A DNA stretch of 64,000 nt, from contig JAUIEJ010000010.1 in NCBI GenBank assembly GCA_030428885.1, positions 62,001-126,000 on the forward strand, in the 5' to 3' direction. Source of the stretch: Gemmatimonadota bacterium. GTDB lineage: Bacteria > Gemmatimonadota > Gemmatimonadetes > Longimicrobiales > Gaopeijiaceae. The position numbers and the translations under genes are program-made. Shown piece by piece: positions 12,011-46,748 of this stretch. How positions within the stretch are numbered: position 1 is the first letter of the stretch; each line of letters opens with the position of its first letter. Under the pieces are notes generated by a model. The model had not been told where the DNA came from. It worked only from the letters and a program-made list of their open reading frames with translations, and ran no database searches.

Positions 12011-13167
12011 GACGCCTCACCCGTAGGGTCGAAGACCCGGGGCCAGTGGCTCTCGTGGAGCTGGGCTTCCGCCGCCGCCACGCCGATGCGCTCGAGGCGA
12101 TCCACCTGATCCGCCCCGTCCAGGGCCCGGAGCCGGTCCAACTCGGCGGGCTCGGCGCTCTCGCCCAGAGCCTCCAGCGCCTCGTGGGTGAGGCGCACGT
12201 CGTAGCGCAGGTAGGTCAGGAGCGGCTCGGGGGTGAGGCGGTCGGTCTGGAGGTCGCCGATCTGGAGGTCGATGGCCCGGGCCGTGGGGCTGTGGGACAT
12301 CCACTGGAGGAGCGTTTCCCCGAGTTCGGAGGCCTCCTGGAGGAGCTGGACCATGAGCTGGCCGAGCCACTGGACCTGGCGGTATCCCCGGATCGATTCG
12401 CTGGACGGAGCGGCGTTGTAGGCTCCGGTCCCCACCGAACAGAGCAGGATCCGGTCGGCCCCGGGGGTCCACCGCAACCCGAACCCATCGAGGCACGCCA
12501 CCATGAACATCTGGAGCGCCGGATTGGAGTGCATGGAGACGGATCCGTCCACGAACACCGCCGATTCCCCGGCGCCCACGTCGGCCATGCGTTGGGGATC
12601 GAAATAGGTGGGCGCGGCGCTGGAGGCCCGGAGCACTTCCCAGATCCGCAGATGTCGGTTCATCTCGTAGAATCGATGGCCGGGCACGTTGGTGAGCTGC
12701 CAGACCGACGCCGTATCCGCCCGCTTGGCCACCACCACCAACCCGGAGCGGAAGCCCTCGTCGTCGAGGCGCATCTCGCCGATCTCGGTGCGGATCGCGT
12801 GTTCGAGAGGTCGCTCGTCGAACTTCGAACCCACCAGACGAGCCAGGGGTCCCAGGAGCGAACGACGGGGTCGAAACACATCGCTGGCCAGGGTCCGATA
12901 CAGCCCCACCACCTTCTCCACCGGCCACCCCAGGGCGAGGGACGCGGCGATGAGGGCTCCGGTGCTCGTGCCGCCCATGAGATCGAAGTAGTCGGACAGC
13001 ACCAGGTCCGGCCGGCCGGTCCGCTCGCGCAGGACGGTCTCGAGCCGCTGGAGGTACCCCAGGGTGATGAGCCCCCGGATGCCGCCCCCGTCGAGGGACA
13101 GGATCCGTTTGGGACCCGGGGCGGAAAGGCGGCGGACGAGGTGGGCAGGAGGAGGCGGGGCAGTCAT
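12007..13167 (-). CDS. Patatin-like phospholipase
   Basis: A 386-residue patatin-family acyl hydrolase. The oxyanion motif D-G-G-G-I-R-G is at 26-32 and the nucleophile elbow G-T-S-T-G at 66-70, with Ser68. The partner Asp is in D-G-S near 207, where Gly or Ala usually follows instead of Ser. The family cleaves membrane phospholipids using a Ser-Asp dyad, and related enzymes (CapV) are effectors of CBASS immunity. I chose ATG 13167 because it precedes the conserved core by about 20 residues; a GTG at 13299 would add 44 low-complexity residues. It is the first gene of a GTGA-coupled operon with a SLOG-like protein and a STAND ATPase. Confidence 0.85.
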   Translation of the reverse strand: MTAPPPPAHLVRRLSAPGPKRILSLDGGGIRGLITLGYLQRLETVLRERTGRPDLVLSDYFDLMGGTSTGALIAASLALGWPVEKVVGLYRTLASDVFRPRRSLLGPLARLVGSKFDERPLEHAIRTEIGEMRLDDEGFRSGLVVVAKRADTASVWQLTNVPGHRFYEMNRHLRIWEVLRASSAAPTYFDPQRMADVGAGESAVFVDGSVSMHSNPALQMFMVACLDGFGLRWTPGADRILLCSVGTGAYNAAPSSESIRGYRQVQWLGQLMVQLLQEASELGETLLQWMSHSPTARAIDLQIGDLQTDRLTPEPLLTYLRYDVRLTHEALEALGESAEPAELDRLRALDGADQVDRLERIGVAAAEAQLHESHWPRVFDPTGEAS

Positions 13168-13819: not shown

Positions 13820-14425
13820 ATGGAGTCCGAGTCCTCGCCCGTCACCCGTCTCCTCCACGACGCCAGTCACGGCAACCGGGAGGCCTTCGACCGCCTGCTG
13901 CCGATGGTGTACGACGAACTCCGCCGGGTGGCGGCGAACCAGATGTCCCGCGAACGGGCGGGACACACCCTGAGCGCCACGGCCCTCGTCCACGAGGCCT
14001 ACGTGAAGCTCGTGGGGCAGGACCGGGTGGAATGGGCCGGGCGGTCGCACTTCTTCGCCGTGGCCTCCCAGGCCATGCGGCGGGTGCTGGTGACCTACGC
14101 CGAGTCCCGGCGCGCGAAGAAGCGGGGGGGCGGCGCCGTCCACGTGCCCCTGGACGCCGTTCCCACCCTCACCGCGGCCCAGGCCGACGACGTCCTGGAT
14201 CTCCACGAGGCCATGAACCGTCTGGCGGCGTTCAACCCCCGGGGCGCCCGGGTGGTGGAGTGCCGGTTTTTCGGGGGCATGGCCCATCCGGAGATCGCCG
14301 AGGTGCTGGGGGTCTCCGAACCCACGGTGCGGCGGGCGTGGTCGGCCGCCCGGGCCTGGCTCCGCCGGGAGTTGGGCGACGGACGGGATCCGGCGGTGAC
14401 CCTGGGCCTCCGGGACGCGGGCTGA
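13820..14425 (+). CDS. ECF-type RNA polymerase sigma factor (first of three)
   Basis: A 201-residue sigma factor of the sig-70_X6 type. Region 2 lies at about 8-95 and region 4 at about 125-190 (G-A-R-V-V-E-C-R-F-F-G-G, then E-I-A-E-V-L-G-V-S helix-turn-helix). The acidic D-A-E-D patch that usually precedes L-V-Q-E in region 2.2 is replaced by S-A-T-A (residues 52-55), next to T50. Such a patch deficiency is known in sigma factors activated by kinase phosphorylation (EcfP with PknT in Vibrio). No anti-sigma gene is nearby; a TPR kinase follows after four bases, so phospho-control is the likely mode. Confidence 0.88.
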   Translation: MESESSPVTRLLHDASHGNREAFDRLLPMVYDELRRVAANQMSRERAGHTLSATALVHEAYVKLVGQDRVEWAGRSHFFAVASQAMRRVLVTYAESRRAKKRGGGAVHVPLDAVPTLTAAQADDVLDLHEAMNRLAAFNPRGARVVECRFFGGMAHPEIAEVLGVSEPTVRRAWSAARAWLRRELGDGRDPAVTLGLRDAG

Positions 14426-14429
14426 CCCG

Positions 14430-19196: not shown

Positions 19197-19927
19197 GGCC
19201 GGCGGAGGCGCTGGATCATGTACTCCAGCGCCGCTGCGGGGATCGGGCCGGCCCAGACCACCGGATCTTCCTCCCACGCCGGCGGCTGGGCCATGCGGGT
19301 GGGAACCACGCCTCCCACCACGGGCGCCCGCCCCGGGTCCGGCTCGTCGGGAGGCGTCTGGGTCACCAGGACGTGGAGCTGGGCCGGGATCCGGTCGGGA
19401 TACGAGCCGGCGTCCACGGCGAGAAGCTCGTCGAGGAACGAGCGCCGCACCACGGTTCGATCGAGTTCGACGTCGCCGCCGTCCACGGGTCGCCAGGAGC
19501 GCTCCTCCACCCACCGTCGTCCGTCCACCAGGGGATCCCAGAGCACCATGCGGTCGACGTCGCGACGGCCCACCGCGGCCCGCGACGCCACCAGACCGCC
19601 GAGGCGCAGTCCCACGAGATCCACCCGGGGACGTCCCGACAGGGCCCGGAGCTCGTCGAGGGCGGTCCCCGCGTCGCCCACCCACCGGTCCAGATCCGCC
19701 TCGGTGGTGTCGCCCCACGAGTCCCCGGTGCCCGCGTAGTCGAACCGAAGCACGAAGTGCCCGTCGTCGGCCAGGAGTTCGGCCAGCCGGGTCATGGCCC
19801 GGTGGGCGTACTCGTACTCCCGGGCCCAGGGGCCGCACAGGAGCACGGCCCCCCGATCGGGCCCGGCGGCCTCGTGGAAGTACCCGAAGAGCTGGGCGCC
19901 CGGGGGACCGAAGTAGAAGGCGCTCAC
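19193..19927 (-). CDS. Alpha/beta hydrolase lacking a canonical nucleophile
   Basis: A 244-residue alpha/beta hydrolase fold protein starting at GTG 19927, which overlaps the NRPS stop as GTGA. Residues 60-71 carry the R-F-D-Y-A-G-T-G-D-S segment typical of the fold. The elbow reads G-L-R-L-G (106-110), putting Arg108 at the nucleophile position. From memory, a G-L-R-L-G elbow is also seen in one class of exosortase A-associated hydrolases. Either it uses another residue or it serves as a non-catalytic partner of the next hydrolase. Longer upstream extensions of this frame are shadow of the NRPS. Confidence 0.72.
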   Translation of the reverse strand: MSAFYFGPPGAQLFGYFHEAAGPDRGAVLLCGPWAREYEYAHRAMTRLAELLADDGHFVLRFDYAGTGDSWGDTTEADLDRWVGDAGTALDELRALSGRPRVDLVGLRLGGLVASRAAVGRRDVDRMVLWDPLVDGRRWVEERSWRPVDGGDVELDRTVVRRSFLDELLAVDAGSYPDRIPAQLHVLVTQTPPDEPDPGRAPVVGGVVPTRMAQPPAWEEDPVVWAGPIPAAALEYMIQRLRRP

Positions 19928-22900
19928 GAGACCGGTTCCGGCTCGGGGAGCGAGGTGGCGATCTCGGCCAGGGAGAGGAAGAAGAGAGCCCGGGGGTCGA
20001 TGCGCATCCCCGTCCGCTCTTCCAGATCCGTCACCACCTGCATGGCCAGGAGGGAGTGCCCCCCGAGGTCGAAGAAGTTGTCGGTGGCGCCCACCGCGGG
20101 GAGGTCCAGCGCCGACGCCCACACCGCGGCCACCAGCTCTTCCCGGGGACCCCGGGGCGGGCGCCCCGCCCGCTCGGCCCCGCGCTCCTGCTGGGGATCG
20201 GGCAGGGCCTTGCGATCGACCTTCCCGTTGGGCGTCAGGGGCAACCGGTCGATGGAGACGAAGGCCGAGGGCATCATGTAGCCCGGAAGGCGCCCCGCCA
20301 CCCAGCGCCGCAGATCCACGGACCGGACCTCGGCGCCCTGGGGAACCAGGTACGCCACGAGCCGATCGTCCCGGGCCGCCACCACGGCGTCGGCGACCCC
20401 GTCCAGGGCCCGGAGACAGCTCTCCACCTCCCCCAGCTCGATGCGGAAGCCCCGGACCTTCACCTGGTGATCCAGGCGGCCCAGGTGTTCGAGTCGACCG
20501 TCGTGGCGCATGCGGACCAGATCGCCGGTGCGGTACACGGCCTCGCCCTCGTGGAAGGGCGCGTCGAGGAAGCGCTCCGCCGTGAGTTCGGGTCGGCCGT
20601 GGTAGCCCAGGGCCACCCCCTCGCCTCCGATCCACAACTCGCCGGGCACGCCCACCGGGGTGGGCTGCCCGCCGGGCCCCACCACGTAGACCGACGTGTT
20701 GGCGATGGGGCGACCGATGAGGATGGGTTCGCCGGCCTCCACCCGCTGGAGCGTCGACCAGACCGTGGCCTCCGTGGGGCCGTACATGTTCCACAACTCG
20801 CCCACCACCGGACGGAGTCGGTCGGCCAGGGCCGGAGGGAGGGGCTCGCCGCCGCACAGGGCCCGCAGCCCCTCCCGACCTTCCCACCCCGCCGCCAGGA
20901 GCAGCTTCCAGGTGGCGGGGGTGGCCTGGAGAACGCTCACGTCCTCGTCGTCCATCAACCCGGCCAGACGGTGGCCGTCCAGGGCGTCCCGTTCGGTGGC
21001 CAGGACCACCCGCGCACCGAGGGTGAGGGGCAGGTACAACTCCAGCACCGCGATGTCGAACGAGATCGTGGTGATGGCCAGGAGCCTGTCGTCGGGCGAG
21101 AGTCCCGGCTCGGCGGCCATGGAGGTGAGGAAGTTGGCCAGAGCCCGGTGGGGCACCGCGACGCCCTTGGGCGTACCCGTGGTCCCGGAGGTGTAGATGA
21201 CGTAGGCCGGGCTGTCCCCCGGCACGTCCACGAAGGGACGGGGCGCGGGGGGCATCCACCGGTCCAGGTCCAGGACCGGAAGCCCCAGATCGAACCGGTC
21301 GTGGAGGTCCCGATGGGACACCACGGCCACGGCCCCGGACTGGCGCGCCATGAACTCCACCCGGGTCTCGGGATACCCGGGATCCACGGGCACGTAGGCG
21401 GCGCCCGCACCGAGGATGCCCAGCATTCCCGGGACCAGATCCCGTCCCCGCTCCATGAGGATCACCACCCGGTCTCCCGGCTCCACCCCCATGGCCCCCA
21501 GGGCGGCCGACACCCGACCCGCCGCCTCCAGGAGCGCCGCGTAGGTGAGGGACCCCTCGTCGGTGACCACGGCGATCCGGTCCGGAGTCCGAGCCGCCTG
21601 GTCGGCGACGAGGGCGTGGAGGGGCCGCCGGGGGAACGGCTCACCTCGTCGATTCACCCGCTCCAGACGGGCCCGCTCCGACGGCACCACCGCCGACAGG
21701 TCCTCGAGATCGAGGTCCGGGTCCTCCATGCCGCGCCGAAGAATGGACGCGTAGTGCGTCACCATGGACTCGGCCGTGGCGGGGGCGAAGAGGGAGGCGT
21801 TGTAGGTCAGGTGGATCCGGGCGCCGTCGGGCTCGAGCATGACGTTGAAGTCCAACTCGAACTGGGCGCCGTTGCGCCGCAGGGGCAGATCCTCGGCTCG
21901 ATAGCCCGGCTCCTGCGTCCGCTCGGGGATCCGGACCATGTTGAAGAGGACCTGGACCAGGGGCGGTCGGCTCCCGTCCCGCCCCTTCTGGAGTTCGTTC
22001 ACCAGGACCTCGAACGGCATCTCCTGGTGCTCGAATGCCTCCAGGGCCGTGGTCCGCACCCGGGCCACCAACTCGCGGAAGGTGGGGGCGCCGGAGAGAT
22101 CGTTCCGGTGCACCACCGTGTTCACGAAGGTCCCCACCAGGGACTGGAGCGACGGGTGGATCCGGTGGGACACGGGAACCGCCACCGCCAGGTCCACCTG
22201 CCCCGACCGTTGATGGAGCAGCACGAAGAAGGCCGCCAGCAGTACCATGAACTCGGTGGCGCCCTCCTGGGCGGCGAACTGCCGCAGATCCCGGAGGAAG
22301 GCGGCGGGGAGCCGGGTGTGGGTCGCGCCCCCCTCGGATTCCAGGATCGCCGGCCGGGGGTGATCCAGGGCCAGGTCGAGGGTGGGGAGTCCCTTCAGAC
22401 GCCCGTGCCAGTAGTCCCGCTGCCCCTGGAGGATCCCCGACTCGAACCACTCTCGTTGCCAGGCCGCGAAGTCCCGGTACTGCACCTCCAGGGGCGGCGA
22501 GGAGGCCACCGAACCCGGTACCTCGTAGGCCTGTCGGACGCTCTCCCCGAAGTGGATCAGGGAGAGGAGGTCGCTCACGATGTGATGCATGCCCAGGCCG
22601 AGGACGTGCCGGTCGTGGTCCAGCCGGGCATGGACGATCCGCACCAGGGGGCCCGTCTCCAGGTCGTACGGCGCGTTGAAGATCTCCGACAACCGGTCCG
22701 TGGCCGCCGGGAGTCGATCGCTCTCGGGGAGGTGGGAGACGTCGAAACGCACCGCGTCGAAGCGCTGGGGCGGCCCCGTCACGGCCCGGGGTCGCCCATC
22801 CCTGAAGACGAACCGGCTGTGGACGACGTGATGTCGTCGCAACACCTCGTCCATGGCGTTCTCCAGCCGGTCCAGGTCCAGCGGGCCCTCCAGGAGGGTG

Positions 22901-23184
22901 GCGCCTCCCATGTTGTACGCGGTGCCCCGGGGATCCAGGTGTTGGGCCACCCACATGCGCTCCTGGGAGAACGACAGAGGGGCCGACTCCCCCAGGTCCC
23001 GGGGACCGAGGTTCGGCACGCCGTCGTCCAGGAGGGTCAACAGCGCCGGCTTGTGCCGGGCCAACGCCTCCCGGAGCTCGGCGGTGATCCGGCCCGGAGG
23101 GGCCGCGACCCGGAGCCGGTCGCCGGAGCGGGACAGGCGAATGCCCCGCTCGGCGAGGGTCCGCACCAGGACGTCGAGCTTCAT
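19924..23184 (-). CDS. Nonribosomal peptide synthetase, TubC docking-C-A-PCP
   Basis: A 1086-residue single module. Residues 1-50 match a TubC-type docking domain, used to accept chains from a PKS. The condensation domain (about 65-500) has the H-H-I-V-S-D active site near 198. The adenylation domain (about 510-990) has Y-T-S-G-T-T-G-T-P-K-G near 661. Its specificity pocket reads D-I-L-(Q/A)-L-G-M-V-W-K by my manual alignment, close to codes known for glycine. The carrier domain has D-L-G-G-H-S-L near 1040. There is no thioesterase, reductase or epimerase, so release must be by a separate enzyme. ATG 23184 lies one base after the PKS stop. Confidence 0.92.
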   Translation of the reverse strand: MKLDVLVRTLAERGIRLSRSGDRLRVAAPPGRITAELREALARHKPALLTLLDDGVPNLGPRDLGESAPLSFSQERMWVAQHLDPRGTAYNMGGATLLEGPLDLDRLENAMDEVLRRHHVVHSRFVFRDGRPRAVTGPPQRFDAVRFDVSHLPESDRLPAATDRLSEIFNAPYDLETGPLVRIVHARLDHDRHVLGLGMHHIVSDLLSLIHFGESVRQAYEVPGSVASSPPLEVQYRDFAAWQREWFESGILQGQRDYWHGRLKGLPTLDLALDHPRPAILESEGGATHTRLPAAFLRDLRQFAAQEGATEFMVLLAAFFVLLHQRSGQVDLAVAVPVSHRIHPSLQSLVGTFVNTVVHRNDLSGAPTFRELVARVRTTALEAFEHQEMPFEVLVNELQKGRDGSRPPLVQVLFNMVRIPERTQEPGYRAEDLPLRRNGAQFELDFNVMLEPDGARIHLTYNASLFAPATAESMVTHYASILRRGMEDPDLDLEDLSAVVPSERARLERVNRRGEPFPRRPLHALVADQAARTPDRIAVVTDEGSLTYAALLEAAGRVSAALGAMGVEPGDRVVILMERGRDLVPGMLGILGAGAAYVPVDPGYPETRVEFMARQSGAVAVVSHRDLHDRFDLGLPVLDLDRWMPPAPRPFVDVPGDSPAYVIYTSGTTGTPKGVAVPHRALANFLTSMAAEPGLSPDDRLLAITTISFDIAVLELYLPLTLGARVVLATERDALDGHRLAGLMDDEDVSVLQATPATWKLLLAAGWEGREGLRALCGGEPLPPALADRLRPVVGELWNMYGPTEATVWSTLQRVEAGEPILIGRPIANTSVYVVGPGGQPTPVGVPGELWIGGEGVALGYHGRPELTAERFLDAPFHEGEAVYRTGDLVRMRHDGRLEHLGRLDHQVKVRGFRIELGEVESCLRALDGVADAVVAARDDRLVAYLVPQGAEVRSVDLRRWVAGRLPGYMMPSAFVSIDRLPLTPNGKVDRKALPDPQQERGAERAGRPPRGPREELVAAVWASALDLPAVGATDNFFDLGGHSLLAMQVVTDLEERTGMRIDPRALFFLSLAEIATSLPEPEPVS

Positions 23185-23185
23185 G

Positions 23186-29530
<6,345 letters not shown>

Positions 29531-29573
29531 TCGTGATCCGTTCAGGTGCGAGTGGCGTGATGGAATCCGGGGC

Positions 29574-31790
29574 TCAGTACCCCAGTTCTTCCAGTTCCTG
29601 GAGGAGGTCCGCTTCCAGCTCTTCTTCGGTGGGCGCGGGGCCCACGGTCTCCCCCGGGGGGCCGACGGGGGAGGTCGGGGACACCACCTCGATGAGGTGG
29701 GCCGTCAGGAGTTCGATGGTGGGGTGCTCCAGCAGCAGCGTGCTGGGCAGCCTCTCCCCGATGGCGGTGCCCAGGCGACTGGCCAGCTCCACCGCCATGA
29801 GGGAGTCGAGGCCCAGGTCCACGAACCCCGTGCGGGGATCGGGGACCCGGGCCGTACCCACGCCCAGGACCGCCGCCAGTTCTTCCCGGACCAGACGGCC
29901 CACGGCCGCCGGTACGGCACGCCCCGACAGCTCCCGCTGCATCAGGGGCACGGGGGCGCGCCGACCGGTCTCCAGCCAGCACTCCTCCCGTTCCATGGGG
30001 TGGAGGGGCAGATCGATCCAGACCGCCGGGGCGGGTACGGGCGCCGATTCGTCGATGTCGGCGCCGTCCACGAAGGCCCGGGCCAACTCGTCCAGGGAGC
30101 GGGGCGGAGGGGCATCGCGGGCGGGGGCGTCGGTGCCGAACACCGACCCCGTCCGGACTCCGGGGGCCTCCGGGTCCTCGATCCAGTCCCGGAGGGCCCG
30201 GGCCAGGCCGGGACCGTCGGGTGCCACCACCGCCAGGCGATGCCGGCGGCGCGTCCGGCGATGCCACGCTCCGGCGCAGACGGCGGCGGGGTCGGCGCCG
30301 CCCTCAAGGAGGGTGGCGTAGTCGTCGGCCAGCGTCTCGAGGGCCTGGGGTCGGAACGCCGAGAGGGCCAGGAGGTGGGGGCCCGGCGCGGACTCGGGCG
30401 CTTCCCGGGGGGCGGCGCCGTCGTACTGGCGCACCACCACGTGGGCGTTGGTGCCGCCGAACCCGAAGGAACTGACGCCCGCCACCCGGGGACCCGGGGT
30501 CGACCACGGCACCGCCTCGGTGGCCAGGCGCAGGCGCGATCCGTCCAGGGAGAGGAGGGGGTTGGGCTCGGACAGGTGGAGGTTCGGCGGGATCGCGCCC
30601 CGTTCCACGGCGAGCACGGCCTTCATGAGCCCCGCCAGTCCCGCGGTCCCCTCGGCGTGCCCGATGTTGGTCTTCACGGCGCCGAGCCAGCAGGGATCGT
30701 CACCCTCGCCCAGCACGGTGGCCAGCGCCTCGACCTCGATGGGGTCGCCCAGCCGCGTGCCCGTGCCGTGGGTCTCCACGAACGTCACCTCCCGGGCGTC
30801 CACCCGGGCGTCGGCCAGAGCGGCCCGGATCACCCGCTCCTGGGACCGTCCGTTGGGGGCGGACAGGCCGTTGGTGCGGCCGTCCTGATTCACGGCGGAT
30901 CCCGCCAGGACGGCCAGGATCCGGTCTCCGTCCCGCTCGGCGTCGGCCAGGCGCTTGAGCACGATCACTCCCACGCCTTCGGCCCGGACGATGCCGTCGG
31001 CCGACGCGTCGAAGGTCCGACACCGACCCGAGGGCGAGAAGAGGCGCATCTTGGAGAAGGCCACCGTGGGCGCCGGCTGCAGCACCAGGTTGGCGCCGCC
31101 GGCGAGAGCGAGATCCACCTCGCCCGACCGCAGGCTGCGCATGGCCAGATGGACCGCCACCAGGGACGCCGAGCACGCCGTGTCCACCGTGTAGCTCGGG
31201 CCGTGGAGGTCCAGCCAGTAGGAGAGGCGGTTCGCCAGGATGCTGTGGCCCGTGGCGGTGGCCGTGTGGGGGTCGATGGACTCGGGGTGACCCAGTTGGA
31301 GGGCGGCGTAGTCGTCGCTGTAGCTGTGGGCGCCCACCATCACGCCCGTGGCCGACCCCGTCAGGGCGTCCAGGGCGATCCCCGCTCGCTCCAGGGCCTC
31401 GTGGGTGACCTCGAGGAGCAGGCGCTGCTGCGGGTCCATGGCCCGCGCTTCCCGGTGGGGAATCCCGAACAACTCCGGATCGAAGGTGCGCACGTCGTCG
31501 AGGAAGCCCCCCCATCGGGTGGTCATGCGACCGGGAGCGTCCAGGTCCGGATCGAACCACGCGTCGGCGTCCCAGCGATCCGGGGGAACCGGACCCACCG
31601 CGTCCACTCCGTCCCGGAGCAGGGTCCAGAACGCCTCGGGACTCGCGACCCCCCCGGGGAATCGGCACCCCATGCCCACCACGGCGATGGGGGCCCGGGA
31701 GGTGGCCTCCACCCGGTCGAGGCGCGCCCGGAGCTCCCGAAGCGCCGTCAGGGCCTTGCGCAGCCGTCCGTCGCCGGTGTCGTGGCTCAT
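29574..31790 (-). CDS. Polyketide synthase KS-ACP protein lacking its acyltransferase
   Basis: A 738-residue protein: N-terminal coiled docking helix, intact KS with Cys206 (D-T-A-C-S-A-S), H-G-T-G-T and N-I-G-H-A-E, and an ACP with G-L-D-S-L near the C terminus. No AT domain lies between them, yet both of its normal flanks remain. One is the KS-AT linker (L-S-A-F-R-P-Q-A-L and L-A-D-D-Y). The other is the post-AT strand (D-L-P-L-H-P-M-E-R-E). This looks like a clean loss of the AT. The extender must come from another AT in the cluster or from outside. ATG 31790 overlaps the previous PKS stop as ATGA; frames extending to 33698 are shadow. Confidence 0.9.
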   Translation of the reverse strand: MSHDTGDGRLRKALTALRELRARLDRVEATSRAPIAVVGMGCRFPGGVASPEAFWTLLRDGVDAVGPVPPDRWDADAWFDPDLDAPGRMTTRWGGFLDDVRTFDPELFGIPHREARAMDPQQRLLLEVTHEALERAGIALDALTGSATGVMVGAHSYSDDYAALQLGHPESIDPHTATATGHSILANRLSYWLDLHGPSYTVDTACSASLVAVHLAMRSLRSGEVDLALAGGANLVLQPAPTVAFSKMRLFSPSGRCRTFDASADGIVRAEGVGVIVLKRLADAERDGDRILAVLAGSAVNQDGRTNGLSAPNGRSQERVIRAALADARVDAREVTFVETHGTGTRLGDPIEVEALATVLGEGDDPCWLGAVKTNIGHAEGTAGLAGLMKAVLAVERGAIPPNLHLSEPNPLLSLDGSRLRLATEAVPWSTPGPRVAGVSSFGFGGTNAHVVVRQYDGAAPREAPESAPGPHLLALSAFRPQALETLADDYATLLEGGADPAAVCAGAWHRRTRRRHRLAVVAPDGPGLARALRDWIEDPEAPGVRTGSVFGTDAPARDAPPPRSLDELARAFVDGADIDESAPVPAPAVWIDLPLHPMEREECWLETGRRAPVPLMQRELSGRAVPAAVGRLVREELAAVLGVGTARVPDPRTGFVDLGLDSLMAVELASRLGTAIGERLPSTLLLEHPTIELLTAHLIEVVSPTSPVGPPGETVGPAPTEEELEADLLQELEELGY

Positions 31791-34700
31791 TCCGGGCCTC
31801 CGAGCCAGTCGTCCAGTTCGGCGAGTTCCCGATCCAGGAGGCGCTCGATGGATTCGGGGGAATCGTCCGGCGGGGCCGGGCTCGACGCCGCTCCCCCCTG
31901 CGGACGAGCGCCCTCGTGGAGCGCCGCGAGATGGGCCGCGAGGCCGTCGGGGGTGGGGTGGTTCCAGACGACCGTGGCCGAGAGCCCGAGGCCGAGATCC
32001 CGCTCGAGGCGGTTCCGGAATTCCAGCGACATCAGCGAGTCCATCCCCATGGAGCGAAACGTCTGCGAACCATCGATCTGCGTCCGGTCGAGGTGGAGCA
32101 CCTCCGACAGGCGATCTCGCACCGTGGCACGGATCAGGCGCCGGCGGGCCTCGGGAGACCCGGCCCCGTCCAGTCGAGCCCGGGGGGCGGTCTCGTCGTC
32201 GGTGGGGGGCGCCACCCCGTCGACTCGGCGGTACCACACCGAGGTTTCCCGGAAGGGGTGGAGAGGGAACGGCACTCGAGGCCCGGCGAAGGGCACCACC
32301 ACGGACCAATCCAGTTCCACTCCCTCCTCCCAGAGGCGCGCGCAGGCTTCCAGCATTCCCAGGCGTCCGCCGCCGTCGCGGCGGAGCGTGCCCATGGCCC
32401 GAGCCGCCCCGTCCTCCACCCGGACCGTCTCGTCCACGGCGTGGGTCAGGACCGGGTGGGGGCTCACCTCCAGGAACAGCGCCCTGCCCCCCCGATCCCG
32501 GGCCCCCCGGGCGAGGGACTGAACCGTCGGGGCGAGACGAACGGGGTGTCGCAGGTTCCCTACCCAATAGTCGGCCCCTACGCTTTCGCCGTCCACCTTT
32601 GCGGCCGTCACCGTGGAATGGAAGGGGACGCGCCCGGGAGCCGGAGCCAACGAGGCCAGCGACTCCCGGAGGTCGGGGGTGAGGGGGTCGACCTGGGGAC
32701 TGTGGGACGCCACGTCCACGGCGACGGACCGGACGTAGACCCCGGCTCCCTCCAACTCCGTCCGGAGGGCGTCCACGGCGTCGGGGTCCCCGGAGAAGAC
32801 CACCGACCGCACCCCGTTCCAGGCGGCCAGATCCATGCCCGGGCGCCCCGCGAGCACCTCCCGGGCTTCGTCCATGGAGAGCTCCGCCATGAGCATGGCT
32901 CCCCGACCCGCGATGCGCCGGAGGAGGAGGCTCCGCCGGCACACCACCTCGATGGCGGCCTCCAGGGTGAGGATCCCCGCCACGTGGGCGGCGGCGACCT
33001 CGCCCATGCTGTGCCCCACCACGGCGGCCGGGCGGAGTCCCCAGGCCTCCCACAGCGAGGCCAGCGCCAGGTAGACCGACACCAGGACCGGCTGGATCAC
33101 GTCCACCCGGTCCATGGCCCACCGGGGATCGTCGGGATCCAGGCGGAGCTGCTCGACCAGGGACCAGTCGACCCAGGGGCGCAGGGCCTCCTCGCACCGT
33201 TCCACGGTGGCCCGGAACGTCGGTTCCTCCAGGAGCCCGCGGCCCATCCCCACCCATTGGGGGCCCTGACCGGGAAAGACCCACACCACCTCGGGGGTGG
33301 CGGCGGCGGCAGGGAAGTCGCCGGCACGGCCCACGGCCTCCCGGAGAGCCGCGGCCAGCCCGGCGGGACTCGGCCCCGCGGCCCCGAGGCGCAGGCCGTG
33401 GCGAACCCGCTGTCGGGCCAGCCCCGCGGCCAGCGCCGCCACCGTTTCCGGCGAGGCCGTGTCCAGGTCTCGGGCCACCTGTCCGGCAAGGTCCCGAAGC
33501 CCCGCAGGGGAGTCGGCGGACAGAAGGAGGAGGGTCTCGGGCGGCCCCGGACGCCCCACGTCCCGCCGGGGCGCCGGCCCCAGCACCAGATGGGCGTTGG
33601 TGCCGGCCAGCCCGAACGAACTCACGCCGACCCGGGGGTCGACCCCGCCGCCCAGGGGCACGGGCGCCCCGGGGACCCGGAGGCCCAGTGGGCCCCATGG
33701 CACCGACGGAGTGGGCTCCCGGAGGTGGAGGCTCGGGGGAACGACGCCATGGTGGAGGATCAGGGTGGCCTTGATGAGCCCCAGGACCCCGGCGGCCGCC
33801 TCCGCGTGCCCGAAGCCCGTCTTCAGCGAACCCACCAGGCAGGGAGCCCCAACGTCTCCGGCGCGCCCCACCACGGCTCCCAACGCCGCCAGTTCCACCG
33901 GGTCACCCGTGGGCGTACCCGTGCCGTGGGCCTCCACGTAGGCGGCGGTCCGGGGGTCGTCTCCGGCGTCGCTCCAGGCGGCCCGGAGCACGTCGATCTG
34001 GCCCTCCACCTCGGGGCGCACGAAATGCTCGCCCCTCCCTCCGTCGTTGTTCACCGCGCCGCCCCGGATGACGGCCCACACCGGGTCGCCGGCCTCCATA
34101 GCGGCCGCCAGGGGCTTCAGGATCACCACACCCACCCCTTCGCTCCGGACGAACCCGTCGGCCGACGCGTCGCCGAACTTGCAGCGGCCGTCGGGAGCCA
34201 GCATCCCGGCCCGTTGGTAGGCCGCCGTGACATGGGGCGACAGGATCACGTTGGCGCCGCCGGCCACCGCCACGTCGCATTCGCCGGCTCGAAGGCTCAC
34301 GCAGGCCCGGTGGACGGCCACCAGCGACGACGACGCCGCCGTATCCACCACCAGGGCCGGTCCCCCCAGTCCGAAGACGTGGGCGATCCGGCCCGCCGCC
34401 GCGTACCGGCCGGTGCCGGTGGTCATGTGGAAGTCGAGGGTGCCCCGATCCTCCAGGAGCCGCGTCTCGAAGTCCTGGCTCCACAGGCCGACCCAGACAC
34501 CGGTGCGGCACCCCGTCAGGGCCGCGGGCGACGACCCCGCATGCTCCACGGCGTCCCAGGTGGCCTCCAGGAGCAGGCGCTGCTGGGGGTCCATGACCTC
34601 GGCTTCCCGGGGCGAGAGCCCGAAGAGGCCGGGGTCGAACCGGTCGATCCCGCCCAGTCGCCCGGCGCCGGGGCCGCCGGCGGTGTCGGCGCCCGGAGGC

Positions 34701-34840
34701 AGAAGCCCATGCCGGTCCGGCTGCTCCGCCGCCAGGGCGTCGGTGCCGTCGAGGAGGGCGGCCCACAGCGCCTCGGGGCCCCGGATGCCCCCGGGCAGGC
34801 GGCAGCCCATGCCGATGATGGCGATGGCGCGATCAGCCAT
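31787..34840 (-). CDS. Loading polyketide synthase, KS(Ala)-AT-ACP
   Basis: A 1017-residue protein starting directly with the KS, without the docking helix seen in the other PKS proteins. The active-site motif reads D-T-A-A-S-S-S-L: residue 169 is Ala (GCG at 34336-34334) in place of the essential Cys. H-G-T-G-T and the G-H-A-E histidine remain. Such a KS cannot condense but may decarboxylate, like the KSQ domains of loading modules. The AT has G-H-S-M-G, R-V-D-V-I-Q-P and V-A-S-H, the methylmalonyl-type pattern, predicting a propionyl starter. The ACP has G-M-D-S-L. It is the first PKS read in the cluster, as expected of a loader. Confidence 0.92.
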   Translation of the reverse strand: MADRAIAIIGMGCRLPGGIRGPEALWAALLDGTDALAAEQPDRHGLLPPGADTAGGPGAGRLGGIDRFDPGLFGLSPREAEVMDPQQRLLLEATWDAVEHAGSSPAALTGCRTGVWVGLWSQDFETRLLEDRGTLDFHMTTGTGRYAAAGRIAHVFGLGGPALVVDTAASSSLVAVHRACVSLRAGECDVAVAGGANVILSPHVTAAYQRAGMLAPDGRCKFGDASADGFVRSEGVGVVILKPLAAAMEAGDPVWAVIRGGAVNNDGGRGEHFVRPEVEGQIDVLRAAWSDAGDDPRTAAYVEAHGTGTPTGDPVELAALGAVVGRAGDVGAPCLVGSLKTGFGHAEAAAGVLGLIKATLILHHGVVPPSLHLREPTPSVPWGPLGLRVPGAPVPLGGGVDPRVGVSSFGLAGTNAHLVLGPAPRRDVGRPGPPETLLLLSADSPAGLRDLAGQVARDLDTASPETVAALAAGLARQRVRHGLRLGAAGPSPAGLAAALREAVGRAGDFPAAAATPEVVWVFPGQGPQWVGMGRGLLEEPTFRATVERCEEALRPWVDWSLVEQLRLDPDDPRWAMDRVDVIQPVLVSVYLALASLWEAWGLRPAAVVGHSMGEVAAAHVAGILTLEAAIEVVCRRSLLLRRIAGRGAMLMAELSMDEAREVLAGRPGMDLAAWNGVRSVVFSGDPDAVDALRTELEGAGVYVRSVAVDVASHSPQVDPLTPDLRESLASLAPAPGRVPFHSTVTAAKVDGESVGADYWVGNLRHPVRLAPTVQSLARGARDRGGRALFLEVSPHPVLTHAVDETVRVEDGAARAMGTLRRDGGGRLGMLEACARLWEEGVELDWSVVVPFAGPRVPFPLHPFRETSVWYRRVDGVAPPTDDETAPRARLDGAGSPEARRRLIRATVRDRLSEVLHLDRTQIDGSQTFRSMGMDSLMSLEFRNRLERDLGLGLSATVVWNHPTPDGLAAHLAALHEGARPQGGAASSPAPPDDSPESIERLLDRELAELDDWLGGPE

Positions 34841-35585
34841 GGCCCTGGCCTGGCCCGGGGAGCGCGGGGGTGAGGGCGCGGAAGAACGCCTCCGGATGCT
34901 CCTGGAAGAAGAAATGCCCTCCCGGCAGGATCACCACCTCCACGTCGCCCGTGGTGGCGTCGTGCCAGCCGTCCATCGAGGCGGGCGGGGCCACTCGATC
35001 CGACGCTCCCCCCAGGGCCAGGATCGGGGTCGAGATGGGGCCGTGCCCTCGGGGGTCGTATCTCTCCAGGGCCCGGAGGTCGGCCCGGAGCGCCGGAAGA
35101 AGGGCCCGCAGCAGGTCGGGGGCCTGCAGGACCTCGTCGGGCACTCCCCCGTACCGGGACCGGACCGACCGCAGGAGGTCGTCGTCGTCCAGCCCGTGGA
35201 GGGGCGGCAGGAGGTGCCCCCACGCGGGCGCCTGCCGACCCGAGACCACGAGGCGCACCGGCGCCCGTCCCCGAGCTTCGAGTCGGCGCACGACCTCCCA
35301 CCCGAGCCACGCCCCCAGGGAGTGGCCGAACACCGTAAACGGCCGGTCCACCCATTCCCCCATGGCCTCTTCGGCCGCATCGGCCAGGGCGTCGAGGTCG
35401 CCGACGGGGGGTTCGGCGAAGCGGGAGCCGCGCCCCGGAAGGGCCAGGGCCACGGGGACCGTGCCGGTGGGTAGTCGGCCGGCCCAGTCGCGAAACACGG
35501 CGGGACCGCCTCCGGCGTGGGGCAGACAGAACAGCAGGGTGTCGGCGCGGCGCCGATCACCGAACGGCAGGAACCAATCGACCAT
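34833..35585 (-). CDS. Type II thioesterase
   Basis: A 250-residue alpha/beta hydrolase of the editing thioesterase family. It has L-P-H-A-G-G-G at 21-27, the nucleophile elbow G-H-S-L-G at 87-91 (Ser89), an Asp in G-A-S-D-R-V, and G-G-H-F-F-F around the catalytic His. It normally clears stalled or wrong acyl groups from carrier domains and may also load or release chains. I prefer ATG 35585, which begins the family-typical M-V-D-W-F; GTG 35621 would add 12 residues. It overlaps the loading-PKS start by eight bases. Confidence 0.9.
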   Translation of the reverse strand: MVDWFLPFGDRRRADTLLFCLPHAGGGPAVFRDWAGRLPTGTVPVALALPGRGSRFAEPPVGDLDALADAAEEAMGEWVDRPFTVFGHSLGAWLGWEVVRRLEARGRAPVRLVVSGRQAPAWGHLLPPLHGLDDDDLLRSVRSRYGGVPDEVLQAPDLLRALLPALRADLRALERYDPRGHGPISTPILALGGASDRVAPPASMDGWHDATTGDVEVVILPGGHFFFQEHPEAFFRALTPALPGPGQGHG

Positions 35586-35625
35586 GGGCCGGTGTGACGG
35601 ACCGGAATAGAGAGGGAGCACGGCG

Positions 35626-36447
35626 CTACCGCTCGAGCAACGACAGAACGGACAGATGCCGGACCGGAAAGATGCGCTCGATCAGAGCGGCGATGCGGGC
35701 GTCGCGGCCCACGACTACACGGGTCCGGCGGGCGTCCACCGCCTTGAGGATCGACCGGGCCGCCCGCTCCGGCGGCAAGGTCAACCAGCGGCGGGATTCG
35801 GCGATCCCCCGGTCGTGCTCCCGAGGCTCCACACTCTGTCCGCGACGGGTCCTCTCCGCAAGACCCGTGGCCAATCCGCCGGGATAGACCGTGGTGACCC
35901 GGACGCCGGTGTGGGCGAGCTCGGAGCCGAGGGCCGCGCCGAAGCCCCGCATTCCGAACTTGGCGGTGCAGTACGCCGTGTATCCCGGGGGGGCGATGAT
36001 GCCGAAGATGCTCGAGATGTTGACGATCTGGGCCCGGGGCCGCTCCAGCAGCAGAGGCAGGAACGCCCGGGTGACCCGGATCGTCCCCAGGAGATTCACC
36101 GCCAGCAGATCGTCGAAGTCGTCGTCGGAGAGCTGGTGGAACCACCCACTGACGTTGACGCCGGCGTTGTTGAAGAGCAGGTGCACCGGCCGCCCCGTTC
36201 CCCGCACGTCGGCGGCGAAGGCCCGCGTGGCGTCGGGATCCGAAACGTCGATGACGCGCGTGCGCACGAGGCCCGCCCCGGCCGCGGCCCGCACGTCCGT
36301 CGCCACGGTCTCGAGCCGGTCCGGGGCCACATCGGCCAGTTCCAGCCCCCAGCCCCGCCCTCCGAGTTCCCTGGCCAGAGCCGACCCCAGCCCTCCGGCC
36401 GCGCCGGTGATGACCGCGGTTCTTTCGGGTTCGTCGAGCCAGCGCAT
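35626..36447 (-). CDS. Short-chain dehydrogenase/reductase
   Basis: A 273-residue classical SDR. T-G-A-A-G-G-L-G at 14-21 binds the nucleotide, N-N-A-G is at 93-96, and Ser145/146, Tyr159 and Lys163 form the catalytic set. A hydrophobic C terminus may contact membrane or substrate. ATG 36447 sets the nucleotide-binding strand at the usual distance. It is the first gene of the cluster on the minus strand and may act on the product or supply a building block. It could instead be a neighbour with housekeeping work, as the family is very broad. Confidence 0.88.
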   Translation of the reverse strand: MRWLDEPERTAVITGAAGGLGSALARELGGRGWGLELADVAPDRLETVATDVRAAAGAGLVRTRVIDVSDPDATRAFAADVRGTGRPVHLLFNNAGVNVSGWFHQLSDDDFDDLLAVNLLGTIRVTRAFLPLLLERPRAQIVNISSIFGIIAPPGYTAYCTAKFGMRGFGAALGSELAHTGVRVTTVYPGGLATGLAERTRRGQSVEPREHDRGIAESRRWLTLPPERAARSILKAVDARRTRVVVGRDARIAALIERIFPVRHLSVLSLLER

Positions 36448-36544
36448 ATCATGCCCACACGGTAAGGGTCCGGTCCGTTTCCAGCATCGGCACTTGCGTT
36501 CCCGCGCTGGATCCTCGAACGGTGGAGCCCTCAGGACCGAGCCC
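36448..36544 (-). promoter_or_regulatory. Divergent intergenic region with a possible ECF-type promoter for the PKS/NRPS cluster
   Basis: This 97-base gap separates the cluster from the second sigma-kinase cassette. Reading toward the cluster, GGAAAC is followed after 15 bases by CGTG, then the start codon within 15 bases. GGAAC and CGT elements are common to promoters read by ECF sigma factors, though the spacing is slightly short. Because the divergent gene is itself an ECF sigma factor, control of the cluster by that factor is a reasonable hypothesis. No other operator is visible. Confidence 0.3.
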
Positions 36545-37171
36545 ATGACCCACCTCCCGCCCGACCCCGGGGACCCGTCCCCCGTCACCCGACTCCTTCG
36601 GGAAGCCAGCTTCGGCAACCGAACGGCGTTGGACGACGTGTTGCCTCTGGTCTACGACGAATTGAAGTCGCTGGCCCGTTCTCACCTTCGCCGGGAACGG
36701 GCCGAGCACACCCTCAATGCCACGGCCCTGGTCCATGAAGCCTGGGTGCGCCTCGTCGGTCAGGATCAGGTGGAATGGGCGGGCCGATCGCATTTCTACG
36801 GCATCGCCGCCCAGGCCATGCGCCGCGTGCTGGTCAACTACGCCGAGGCTCGCAACGCCCTGAAGCGCGGGGGCGGTGCCGAACACCTGGCCCTGGACGA
36901 GGCCCGAGCGGCTCTGTCGGTGGACGAGGCGACCGACCTCCTGGAACTCGACGAAGCGCTGCGACGCCTACAGGACTTCAACGAGCGGGGCGCCCGGGTG
37001 GTGGAATGCCGGTTCTTCGGCGGCCTCTCCTACGACGAGATCGCCGATGTGCTGGGGGTCTCGAAGATCACGGTCCGACGGTCCTGGGAGGTGGCCAAGG
37101 CATGGCTGAGCCGGGAACTGGGGGAGGCGCACAACCGCCGAACCACGGCCCTTCTCGGCGGCGGAGGCTGA
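36545..37171 (+). CDS. ECF-type RNA polymerase sigma factor (second of three)
   Basis: A 208-residue paralogue of the factor at 13820, similar along its whole length (P-V-T-R-L-L start, D-Q-V-E-W-A-G-R-S-H-F, and the C-terminal V-E-C-R-F-F-G-G and helix-turn-helix). The region 2.2 acidic patch is replaced by N-A-T-A, with T56 and T60 available for phosphorylation. The start at ATG 36545 gives the same N-terminal length as its paralogue; the open frame continues upstream without similarity. A TPR kinase begins one base after its stop. It is transcribed away from the PKS/NRPS cluster. Confidence 0.88.
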   Translation: MTHLPPDPGDPSPVTRLLREASFGNRTALDDVLPLVYDELKSLARSHLRRERAEHTLNATALVHEAWVRLVGQDQVEWAGRSHFYGIAAQAMRRVLVNYAEARNALKRGGGAEHLALDEARAALSVDEATDLLELDEALRRLQDFNERGARVVECRFFGGLSYDEIADVLGVSKITVRRSWEVAKAWLSRELGEAHNRRTTALLGGGG

Positions 37172-43469: not shown

Positions 43470-43512
43470 CTGCGGCTTGCGCCCACGGCCGTCGCCTCGT
43501 CGATTGGCGACC

Positions 43513-44088
43513 ATGGACGAATCGGGCGGCATCACCCACTGGCTGCACCGTCTCGACGGCGGGGACGACGCCGCCCTCGAACATCTCGTGCCCCTCGTCT
43601 ACACCGAGCTGCGGGCGGTGGCGGGGCACTACATGCGCAGTGAACGCGACGATCACACCCTGAGCGCGACCGCCCTCGTCCACGAAGCCTATCTGCGCCT
43701 CTCCCGACAGCGCCGGATCCGGGTCGAAGACCGGAATCACTTCCTCTCGGTGGCCGGCACCATGATGCGCCGGGTGCTCGTGGACTGGGCCCGAGCGAAG
43801 AAGCGGGACAAACGGGGCGGCGGACAGGCTCCCGTTCCCCTGGACGCCGTGGAGGAGTTCCTCTCCGACGACGATGTCGACGAGGTCATCGCCCTGGACG
43901 ACGCCCTGCGCCGTCTGGCCGAGATCAACCCTCGAGGCTCCCAGATCGTGGAACAGCGGTTCTTCGCGGGACTCCAGATGGAGGAGATCGCCGCGTTGCA
44001 CGGCCTGTCGGCTCGCACGGTCCGCCGGGACTGGGTGGCGGCCCGGGCCTGGCTCCGGAAGGAAGTGGACCACGACCTTCGGGGTTGA
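43513..44088 (+). CDS. ECF-type RNA polymerase sigma factor (third of three)
   Basis: A 191-residue sigma factor of the same type as the other two but more diverged. It shares H-T-L-S-A-T-A-L-V-H-E-A-Y in region 2.2 (T49, S51, T53) in place of the acidic patch. The region 4 helix-turn-helix differs (E-I-A-A-L-H-G-L-S). The ATG at 43513 is preferred over an in-frame start at 43477, which adds only basic residues. Its kinase neighbour lies on the opposite strand, converging with six bases between stops, so the pair is not co-transcribed here. Confidence 0.87.
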   Translation: MDESGGITHWLHRLDGGDDAALEHLVPLVYTELRAVAGHYMRSERDDHTLSATALVHEAYLRLSRQRRIRVEDRNHFLSVAGTMMRRVLVDWARAKKRDKRGGGQAPVPLDAVEEFLSDDDVDEVIALDDALRRLAEINPRGSQIVEQRFFAGLQMEEIAALHGLSARTVRRDWVAARAWLRKEVDHDLRG

Positions 44089-44094
44089 CGCCCG

Positions 44095-46539
44095 TCAGCC
44101 CGATGGCTCCCGGTAGCGGTCCGCCTCGTCGGCCCGACCCAGTTCCTCGTAGATCTGGGCGAGGCGCTCCCGGATCTGTCGAACCTGGACGTGGTCGTCG
44201 CCGAACACGGCCCGGTGGATCTCCAACGCCTCCACCAGAGCCCCTTCCGCCTCCGCCCACCGGCCGAGGTCCTGAAGTACGATCCCCAGGTTCTTCACGA
44301 CGAGCCCGAGGTTGGGGTGGGTCGGCCCGAACGACGCTCGGGCCAGGGCCACCGACCGGCGGGCGTAGGGTACGGCCTCCTCCAGGCGTCCGGCGAGGCG
44401 CAGGCCCTGGGCCATGTTGTTGATGACCGGAGCCACGGCAGGGTGGTCGGGACCGTAGATCGCCTCTCGCCGGCGCAGCACTTCGTCGTAGAGGGCCAGG
44501 GCTTCGTCGAAACGCTCCTGCCGAAGCAGCGCCTCGGCCAGGAGGTTCCGGGCGGCGGCCACGTTGGCGTGGTCCTCTCCCCACGCCCCGCGCTGCACGT
44601 CCACGGCCCGACGCAGGGTCGCCTCGGCCCCCCCGGGGTCGCCGAGGCGCACCATGGCCAGGCCGAGATTCGAGAGAGCGGCGCCCAGAACGTCCGGCTC
44701 GTCGGTGTCGGGACCCTCCAGGATCTCCACCGCCTCCTCGAACGAGGCCCGAGCCTCGTCGACCTTCCCCAGCCGGAACTGGGCCGCGCCGAGAGAGGCC
44801 AGGGCGAAGGCCACGCCCCGGCCGGCTCGATCATCGACTCCCCGCTGGATCTCCAGGGCCTCGGCCAACAAGCCGGCGGCCGCCTCGTATTCGCCCCGAG
44901 CATCCATGCGAAGGTCGGCGAGGGCGTTGAGGGACAGGGCCACGTCGGGGTGAAGGTCTCCCAGAGAGCTCCGGCGGAGCGCCAACGCCTCCTCCAGGAG
45001 CGGCTCGGCTCGTTCGTACTCGGCCAGCCCATGGAAGGCCCGGCCGATGGAGTTGAGAACCGCCGCCCGTGCGGTGGGCTCGTCGGCCAGTTCATCGGCC
45101 CGTTCGGCGCCTCGCTCCAGGAGGTCCCGGGCCGTCAGGCGGTCGGCCGTGTCGTCCGGATTGGCCGCGTCGAACAACCCCACGAGGAAGTCCGTGACGG
45201 CCCGGGATTCGTCCAGGGCGGTGCGCGTCCGGGTCTGTTCGGCGGACAGCCGCGTGTTGAGTACCGTCATGGTGGCGGCCAGCGCGGCGACCAGCCCGGC
45301 CACTGCGGTGGTGGCCGCCACGGCCAGCCGGTGCCGTCGCACGAACGACCCGACCCGGTACCCCACGGAATCGGGGCGGGCGGTGACCGGGTGCCCCGCG
45401 AGGTGGCGGCGCACGTCCATGGCCAGTTCCCGGGCCGAGGCGTACCGACGCTCGGGCTCCTTGCGGAGCGCCATGAGCACGATGGCATCGAGGTCGCCCT
45501 TCAAGCTTCGGGCCAGCCCTTCGGGGCCGGTCCGGCGAAGCCGCGCGGGGTGGGTCACCTGCTCGCTCTCCACCGGATCGGCGGGCCTCGCGGCCTCTTC
45601 GCTGGGTCGGGTCGGGGGATCCTCCAGGATGCGGCGGTGGAACTCCAGAGGCGCCGTCTGCGCCGAACGAAACGGGCGACGGCCCGTGAGAAGTTCGTAC
45701 AACAGGATTCCCAGGGCATAGACGTCCGTAGCCGTGGTGATGGCCTCGCCCGCCACCTGCTCGGGGGCGGCGTGCTCGGGCGAAAACATGCGAACGTCGC
45801 CGGTGGGCGGATGATCGTGGTCGCCCCCCCCTTCCAGGATCTTGGCGATCCCGAAGTCGAGAAGCTTGGGGTGTCCGTCGTCGCCCACGAGGATATTGGA
45901 CGGCTTCAGATCGCGGTGCACCACGAGGTTGGTGTGGGCGTAGTGCACGGCGTCGCAGACCGTGGCGAACAACTCCAGCCGCCGGCGAATCCCGAGTTGG
46001 GCTTCGTCGCAATGGGTGGTGATGGGAAGGCCCGGCTCGTACTGCATGACCAGGTACGGGCGCCCATCGTCGGTCACGCCGCCGTCGAGGAGCGTGCTGA
46101 TGTGGGGATGCTGCAACTGGGCCAGAATCTGTCGCTCCGCCAGGAACCGCTCTGCAAGTAGTGCCCCGTCGTAGTCGTCCCGCACCACCTTGAGGGCCAC
46201 GCGCTGGCGGTACTGGTCCGTTCGTTCCGCGAGATAGACCCGCCCCATTCCTCCCCGACCCAGGAGGTCGCGGACGACGTAGGAGCCGATGCGCGTGCCC
46301 CGCGGGATCTCCGCCGTCGTCTTCGCCGGGGCGGTCTCGGTCTCCATGGCCGCGTCGAGGCGCCCCACCCAGGTGAATCCCCCGTCCGTCGCTTCGGCAG
46401 CGAGCATGGCGACCACCTCGTCCCGAAGTGCGGCATCCCCTCCGGTCGCCTCGTCGAGGTACGCCTCTCGGGCGGGAAGGGAGCGCCCCAACGCTTCGAG
46501 AAAGACGGCCTGCAGTCGGTCCCACCGTGAATCGCCCAT
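44095..46539 (-). CDS. Ser/Thr protein kinase with membrane helix and TPR tail (third of three)
   Basis: An 814-residue kinase with the family N-terminal helical region. The glycine loop is G-R-G-G-M-G at 94-99, with K117, H-R-D at 208-210 and D-F-G from D228. A membrane helix follows at roughly 400-420, then about 390 residues of TPR repeats. ATG 46539 is chosen because AGGAG stands six bases upstream and the resulting start, M-G-D-S-R-W-D-R-L, matches the paralogues; ATG 46575 would add 12 residues. The gene converges on the third ECF sigma gene and likely acts on it. Confidence 0.88.
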   Translation of the reverse strand: MGDSRWDRLQAVFLEALGRSLPAREAYLDEATGGDAALRDEVVAMLAAEATDGGFTWVGRLDAAMETETAPAKTTAEIPRGTRIGSYVVRDLLGRGGMGRVYLAERTDQYRQRVALKVVRDDYDGALLAERFLAERQILAQLQHPHISTLLDGGVTDDGRPYLVMQYEPGLPITTHCDEAQLGIRRRLELFATVCDAVHYAHTNLVVHRDLKPSNILVGDDGHPKLLDFGIAKILEGGGDHDHPPTGDVRMFSPEHAAPEQVAGEAITTATDVYALGILLYELLTGRRPFRSAQTAPLEFHRRILEDPPTRPSEEAARPADPVESEQVTHPARLRRTGPEGLARSLKGDLDAIVLMALRKEPERRYASARELAMDVRRHLAGHPVTARPDSVGYRVGSFVRRHRLAVAATTAVAGLVAALAATMTVLNTRLSAEQTRTRTALDESRAVTDFLVGLFDAANPDDTADRLTARDLLERGAERADELADEPTARAAVLNSIGRAFHGLAEYERAEPLLEEALALRRSSLGDLHPDVALSLNALADLRMDARGEYEAAAGLLAEALEIQRGVDDRAGRGVAFALASLGAAQFRLGKVDEARASFEEAVEILEGPDTDEPDVLGAALSNLGLAMVRLGDPGGAEATLRRAVDVQRGAWGEDHANVAAARNLLAEALLRQERFDEALALYDEVLRRREAIYGPDHPAVAPVINNMAQGLRLAGRLEEAVPYARRSVALARASFGPTHPNLGLVVKNLGIVLQDLGRWAEAEGALVEALEIHRAVFGDDHVQVRQIRERLAQIYEELGRADEADRYREPSG

Positions 46540-46748
46540 GGCGAACTCCTGAACGCGTTCGATCGCCTTCTCCATACGGCCGGAGCACGGAGAAAGTCGA
46601 GAATCCCGTGCAATGGCGCGTCGTCCGTGGCGTGAGGCGGACACGACGACGCCCGGCTTCCGCCCCTTCCGTCGTACTGGCCCCCGCGCACGGCACCACG
46701 CATCATTGCCGCATCGACCGTCCCTGATCGCCCCCCGCCCCGCCTACC

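What the first reader, a model, noticed from the sequence alone, without database searches (positions are those of the whole stretch)
29574..31790. KS-ACP protein with a scar where an AT was lost
The KS-to-AT linker and the post-AT strand are both present and joined directly, about 280 residues short of a normal module. This looks like a precise domain deletion inside a cis-AT cluster and not a trans-AT lineage. The module must borrow an AT or be skipped.
Basis: partly seen in the sequence, partly recalled or inferred. Interest (0 to 1): 0.6.

Follow-up and report, generated by a model that had tools for sequence, protein, structure and literature searches.

The report
Polyketide module missing its loading domain
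This bacterial polyketide assembly line has a working-looking module from which the domain that picks up building blocks was cleanly lost, so another enzyme must feed it; such gaps are known and seem to arise repeatedly.

Summary
The gene at 29574-31790 (- strand, 738 aa) encodes docking helix, KS, KS-AT linker domain (LD), post-AT linker (PAL), ACP and docking helix, with no AT. Seventeen residues separate LD from PAL; neighbouring modules have 310-313 (AT included) there, so about 295 are missing. KS and ACP catalytic residues are intact. The junction has no shared repeat longer than 14 nt and no break in codon composition, so an assembly artefact is unlikely.

KS trees place it on the cis-AT side; ten trans-AT references form a separate group (100/100). 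The genome has four ATs: two in this cluster, one in a remote PKS, and FabD. No dedicated trans-AT was found.

Caution: LD joined straight to PAL is the normal layout of trans-AT modules, so the 'scar' proves nothing alone; KS ancestry and context carry the argument. A same-genus genome has another AT-less module whose KS lies elsewhere in the tree, and similar modules recur in several phyla: AT loss looks repeated.

Best reading: a live extension module charged in trans, most likely by a neighbouring AT, possibly FabD; skipping is not excluded. Mixed cis/AT-less lines are known (haliamide; 473 of 8,799 catalogued). New member of a known kind.

The parts
29574..31790 (-). AT-less PKS module gene (P0001): docking helix, KS, LD, PAL, ACP, docking helix; 738 aa
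   Evidence: translation without internal stops; Pfam domains, no Acyl_transf_1
31692..31790 (-). N-terminal docking helix (residues 1-33)
   Evidence: helix 6-31 in the model; aligns with CurL from residue 9
30411..31691 (-). KS domain (residues 34-460), catalytic Cys/His/His intact
   Evidence: Pfam PF00109/PF02801; motifs
30147..30383 (-). KS-to-AT linker domain, LD (residues 470-548)
   Evidence: PF22621 CurL-like_PKS_C at 472-531; pLDDT about 90-96
30096..30146 (-). junction where an AT (about 310 residues in neighbours) is absent; 17 residues 549-565
   Evidence: length comparison; no repeats
29967..30095 (-). post-AT linker, PAL (residues 566-608, ends LPLHPMEREECWLE)
   Evidence: aligns with the linker ends of AT-less and trans-AT modules; pLDDT mostly 67-89
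29694..29894 (-). ACP (residues 633-699), Ser motif LGLDSLM
   Evidence: PF00550; motif
29577..29639 (-). C-terminal docking helix (residues 718-738)
   Evidence: helix 722-735; sequence TEEELEADLLQELEELGY
31787..34840 (-). P0002: loading-type KS(Cys to Ala)-AT-ACP; AT has methylmalonyl-type motifs (RVDVIQ, GHSMGE, VASHS)
   Evidence: Pfam, motifs; overlaps the P0001 gene by 4 bases
32354..33286 (-). AT domain of P0002, candidate donor
   Evidence: PF00698 519-829
23186..29530 (-). P0003: KS-AT-DH-ER-KR-ACP; AT has malonyl-type motifs (GHSLGE, HAFHS)
   Evidence: Pfam, motifs
26948..27853 (-). AT domain of P0003, candidate donor
   Evidence: PF00698 560-861
19924..23184 (-). NRPS module C-A-PCP with TubC-type docking domain
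   Evidence: Pfam
34833..35621 (-). stand-alone thioesterase (type II)
   Evidence: PF00975
35626..36618 (-). short-chain dehydrogenase, likely part of the operon
   Evidence: PF00106

Best explanation
P0001 is an extension module of a small cis-AT PKS-NRPS line (loading KS-AT-ACP, then P0001, then KS-AT-DH-ER-KR-ACP, then C-A-PCP). Its ancestor carried an AT that was lost between the linker domain and the post-AT linker, leaving a folded KS-LD-PAL unit like that of a trans-AT module. The KS is catalytically complete and, by inference, still elongates. Its ACP would be charged in trans by an AT already in the line, most simply that of the upstream loading protein or the downstream malonyl-type AT, with FabD as the alternative. 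Shown: anatomy, intact catalytic residues, cis-AT ancestry of the KS, no dedicated trans-AT in the assembly. Inferred: the loss event, elongation, and who loads the ACP.
For: Anatomy and missing length. KS on the cis side, nearest rows are KS-AT modules incl. same-family and same-genus genomes. Only four ATs in the genome, FabD the only free one. Intact KS and ACP motifs, one operon with ATs on either side, folded KS-LD-PAL model matching both CurL KS-AT and whole trans-AT KS structures such as OzmH KS7. In most loci with AT-less cis-type modules an AT-bearing module lies close by.
Against: No acyl transfer can be shown from sequence. The assembly is 95.4% complete, so a free AT could be in a gap. 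No orthologue retaining the AT was found in 121 genomes of the family. One AT-less KS-ACP module with a cis-type KS (L026) lies in a line with trans-AT KSs, so a trans-AT partner is conceivable here too.
Confidence: 0.6

Rival explanations
1. The module is skipped or is a relay: P0002 passes its chain through P0001 (KS then ACP) without extension, or straight to P0003.
For: No AT of its own; the N-terminal docking stretches of P0001 and P0003 look alike, so P0002 could in principle dock to P0003; no reductive domains.
Against: KS and ACP catalytic residues intact and reading frame uninterrupted; helices typical of docking kept at both ends.
Confidence: 0.2
2. FabD of the fatty acid synthase (contig C8), not a cluster AT, supplies malonyl to this ACP.
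For: The only free AT in the genome is FabD in plsX-fabH-fabD-fabG-acpP-fabF; in G147, whose locus L067 has three AT-less modules, the only AT found is one 286-aa protein.
Against: Two ATs are present in the same operon; nothing in the sequence shows FabD recognition of this ACP.
Confidence: 0.25
3. True trans-AT module imported into a cis-AT line, with a discrete AT missing from the assembly.
For: LD-PAL layout and length (70 residues between two markers, trans-AT references about 58-86) match trans-AT modules.
Against: KS excluded from the trans-AT side (100/100) and joining it to L146 KSs rejected (p 3e-5); no discrete AT.
Confidence: 0.08
4. Assembly error that removed an AT.
For: PKS genes are repetitive (general knowledge); no reads were available to check the join.
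Against: Longest shared word near the junction 14 nt, in-frame join with its own 17-residue linker and no AT ends, steady GC3; the same architecture found in G001.
Confidence: 0.03

Closest known systems
Haliamide PKS-NRPS of Haliangium ochraceum (PMC6274090)
   Same: Cis-AT PKS-NRPS line in which individual modules (2 and 5) lack AT; loading by an enzyme outside the module is proposed.
   Different: There a standalone malonate-type AT in the genome is proposed as donor; here only FabD and in-line ATs were found. Product here unknown.
Trans-AT PKS modules (bacillaene, oxazolomycin)
   Same: KS-LD/FSD-PAL joined without AT, ending in the LPTYPFx5W-type motif that PMC11260071 reports in both families; model covers OzmH KS7 with TMt 0.88-0.90.
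   Different: KS ancestry is cis-AT; neighbours carry their own AT; no discrete AT found.
CurL of curacin A synthase (4mz0)
   Same: Among the closest solved KSs by sequence and the best fold match; alignment includes the N-terminal docking helix.
   Different: CurL has its AT.
Mixed cis/trans-AT assembly lines (catalogue in PMC10394414: 122 PKSs plus 351 PKS-NRPS hybrids of 8,799)
   Same: AT-bearing and AT-less modules in one line.
   Different: The catalogue counts such lines; it was not checked here which of them lack a discrete AT.

Membership tests
Cis-AT type I modular PKS | KS of cis-AT lineage | tested here: met
Cis-AT type I modular PKS | AT domain within each extension module | tested here: not met
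   no PF00698 in P0001; met in P0002 and P0003
Trans-AT type I PKS | extension module without integrated AT, with KS-linker-PAL retained | tested here: met
Trans-AT type I PKS | KS groups with trans-AT KS domains | tested here: not met
   trans-AT rows one side at 100/100 without P0001; AU p 3e-5 against joining the L146 pair
Trans-AT type I PKS | discrete AT encoded with or near the line | tested here: not met
   four ATs in genome, none discrete except FabD; assembly 95.4% complete
Trans-AT type I PKS | LINKS helices in the linker domain | tested here: inconclusive
   junction predicted as coil at low confidence; segment length overlaps trans-AT range
Mixed cis-AT line with AT-less module | AT-less and AT-bearing modules in one line | tested here: met
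Mixed cis-AT line with AT-less module | AT-less ACP is charged in trans | not testable with these tools
   needs an acyl-transfer assay

The most novel reading that the evidence does not exclude
Cis-AT modules repeatedly lose their AT at the same two boundaries (LD end, PAL start) and stay active by sharing an AT already in the line, with no dedicated trans-AT: a naturally evolved, AT-sharing intermediate between cis-AT and trans-AT organisation.
Probability: 0.4. Interest if true: 0.55.

Novelty: new member of a known kind. Interest (0 to 1): 0.36.

Why it matters
If the module works, the LD/PAL borders are natural cut points for removing an AT, and this small line (2 ATs for 3 PKS ACPs) is a convenient system for asking whether one in-line AT can serve a neighbouring ACP. 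Two apparently independent AT losses in one genus, plus degenerate ATs in other genomes, would let the path from intact AT to excised AT be followed.

Tried and rejected
Widespread conserved KS-ACP family: the related-loci hits first suggested many contiguous KS-ACP matches, but domain maps showed most were an upstream ACP plus the KS of a normal KS-AT module; rejected. Orthologue with AT retained: searched 58 relatives and 121 family genomes, none close enough to show the deletion event. Absence of LINKS helices as proof of cis origin: lengths overlap trans-AT modules, dropped. AU test of P0001 with all trans-AT rows as one split was uninformative because the quick free tree was suboptimal and the split allows a basal position. 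Test of P0001 and P0008 as sisters did not finish; their separation rests on starred branches. Direct paper searches for 'lacks an AT domain' phrases gave nothing relevant beyond haliamide.

Full report
What is there. On the minus strand the operon reads SDR (35626-36618), type II thioesterase (34833-35621), P0002 (31787-34840), P0001 (29574-31790), P0003 (23186-29530), an NRPS C-A-PCP (19924-23184), and then an alpha/beta hydrolase and a GT4 glycosyltransferase whose starts are uncertain. P0002 is KS-AT-ACP without an N-terminal docking helix and with the KS Cys replaced by Ala (DTAASSSL), so it looks like a loading module; its AT has methylmalonyl-type motifs. P0003 is KS-AT-DH-ER-KR-ACP with malonyl-type AT motifs (motif meaning from general knowledge of PKS ATs). 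P0001 between them is KS-LD-PAL-ACP with docking-type helices at both ends and no AT.

The gap. From the last LD strand to the PAL helix there are 17 residues in P0001 and 310-317 in P0002, P0003 and the related Streptomyces protein P0009. The join is in frame, has its own short linker (GTDAPARDAPPPR...), shares no word longer than 14 nt with the neighbouring PKS genes and shows no change of codon composition. KS, LD and most of the PAL are predicted with good confidence as one unit (mean pLDDT 83.5 for the whole protein; the 10-residue block at the junction about 61). Foldseek ranks CurL KS-AT first, and the model covers whole trans-AT KS structures such as OzmH KS7 with TMt 0.88-0.90.

What the gap does not prove. 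LD joined to PAL and ending in an LPTYPFx5W-type motif is what trans-AT modules normally have (PMC11260071, PMC11907408; alignment; lengths).

Ancestry of the KS. In a 73-row tree P0001 lies in a 5-row set (97) with four cis-AT KSs, including one from the same genus and one from the same family, on the cis side of a 97 branch. In two careful trees all trans-AT reference rows form one side (100/100 and 100/98, in 100% of bootstrap trees) that does not include P0001; within the cis side its exact neighbours are unresolved. Holding P0001 with the trans-AT pair of L146 costs 90.6 log units (AU p 3e-5). A looser test that allowed a place next to all trans-AT rows was not rejected (p 0.71). By BLAST the best KSs are cis modules at about 60% identity; the best KS from a trans-AT-type line (L026, 54%) is itself on the cis side of the tree.

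Who could load it. The genome (5.39 Mb, 95.4% complete) has four Acyl_transf_1 matches: P0002, P0003, a single-module PKS on contig C4, and FabD in plsX-fabH-fabD-fabG-acpP-fabF on C8. There is no dedicated trans-AT. The in-line ATs are the nearest donors, FabD the next.

Is it alone? Same-genus genome G001 has an AT-less module KS-LD-PAL-MT-ACP (P0008) inside a line whose other modules have ATs; its gap is 18 residues, and the only free-standing AT frame there is 340 aa, of FabD size. P0008 groups away from P0001 (with Roseomonas KSs, 97/88), so the two gaps look independent. Across the fetched loci AT-less cis-side KSs occur in Planctomycetota, Verrucomicrobiota, Pseudomonadota and Actinomycetota; the trees need at least 4 to 6 changes of the AT-less label. 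Unrooted trees cannot tell loss from gain, but the trans-AT rows are all on one side. Some modules hold AT remnants: L058 keeps a 40-bit AT match in which the nucleophile motif reads GHALGE, L039 a 14.5-bit trace with GIGTGQ, and segments of L098 and L087 have no AT match left though a long insert remains.

How it most likely works. P0002 makes and passes the starter to the P0001 KS; a neighbouring AT (or FabD) charges the P0001 ACP; the KS condenses; the chain moves to P0003 and then to the NRPS. Everything after the anatomy is inference. Skipping is the main rival.

Known or new. Lines that mix AT-bearing and AT-less modules are known: 473 of 8,799 in one catalogue (PMC10394414), and haliamide lacks AT in modules 2 and 5 (PMC6274090). 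This is a new member of that kind. The possible extra is recurrence without a dedicated AT.

Noticed in passing
window 31787-34840: The KS of P0002 has Ala in place of the active-site Cys (DTAASSSL) and KTGFGH for KTNIGH; KSQ loaders have Gln there. A Cys-to-Ala loading KS with a methylmalonyl-type AT would be worth a decarboxylation test.
   Followed up: partly
L103:15876-19469: Same-genus genome G001 carries an AT-less module, KS-LD-PAL-methyltransferase-ACP, in an otherwise cis-AT line; its KS is not next to P0001 in the tree.
   Followed up: yes
L058:11787-13046, L039:6563-7822, L098:8009-9268 and 11750-13009, L087:1248-2507: Degenerate AT remnants or long inserts after the KS without the GHSxGE motif (GHALGE in L058), possible intermediates of AT loss.
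   Followed up: partly
L067 (Verrucomicrobiales MAG): Three AT-less KS modules; the genome shows a single AT match, a 286-aa frame of FabD size.
   Followed up: no
L026:2631-4445: KS-LD-PAL-ACP module with a cis-type KS inside a line that also has trans-AT KSs.
   Followed up: partly
window 13820-17171 and 43477-46644: ECF sigma factor genes beside Ser/Thr kinase-TPR genes, twice in the window.
   Followed up: no
L115:6778-13452: The remote PKS on contig C4 has KS-AT-KR-DH-ACP with an AMP-binding_C-like stretch (2058-2133) just before the ACP.
   Followed up: no
window 22853-29536 (+): A 2,227-aa open frame opposite the PKS genes; likely a by-product of 72% GC, not a gene by codon-position composition.
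   Followed up: no
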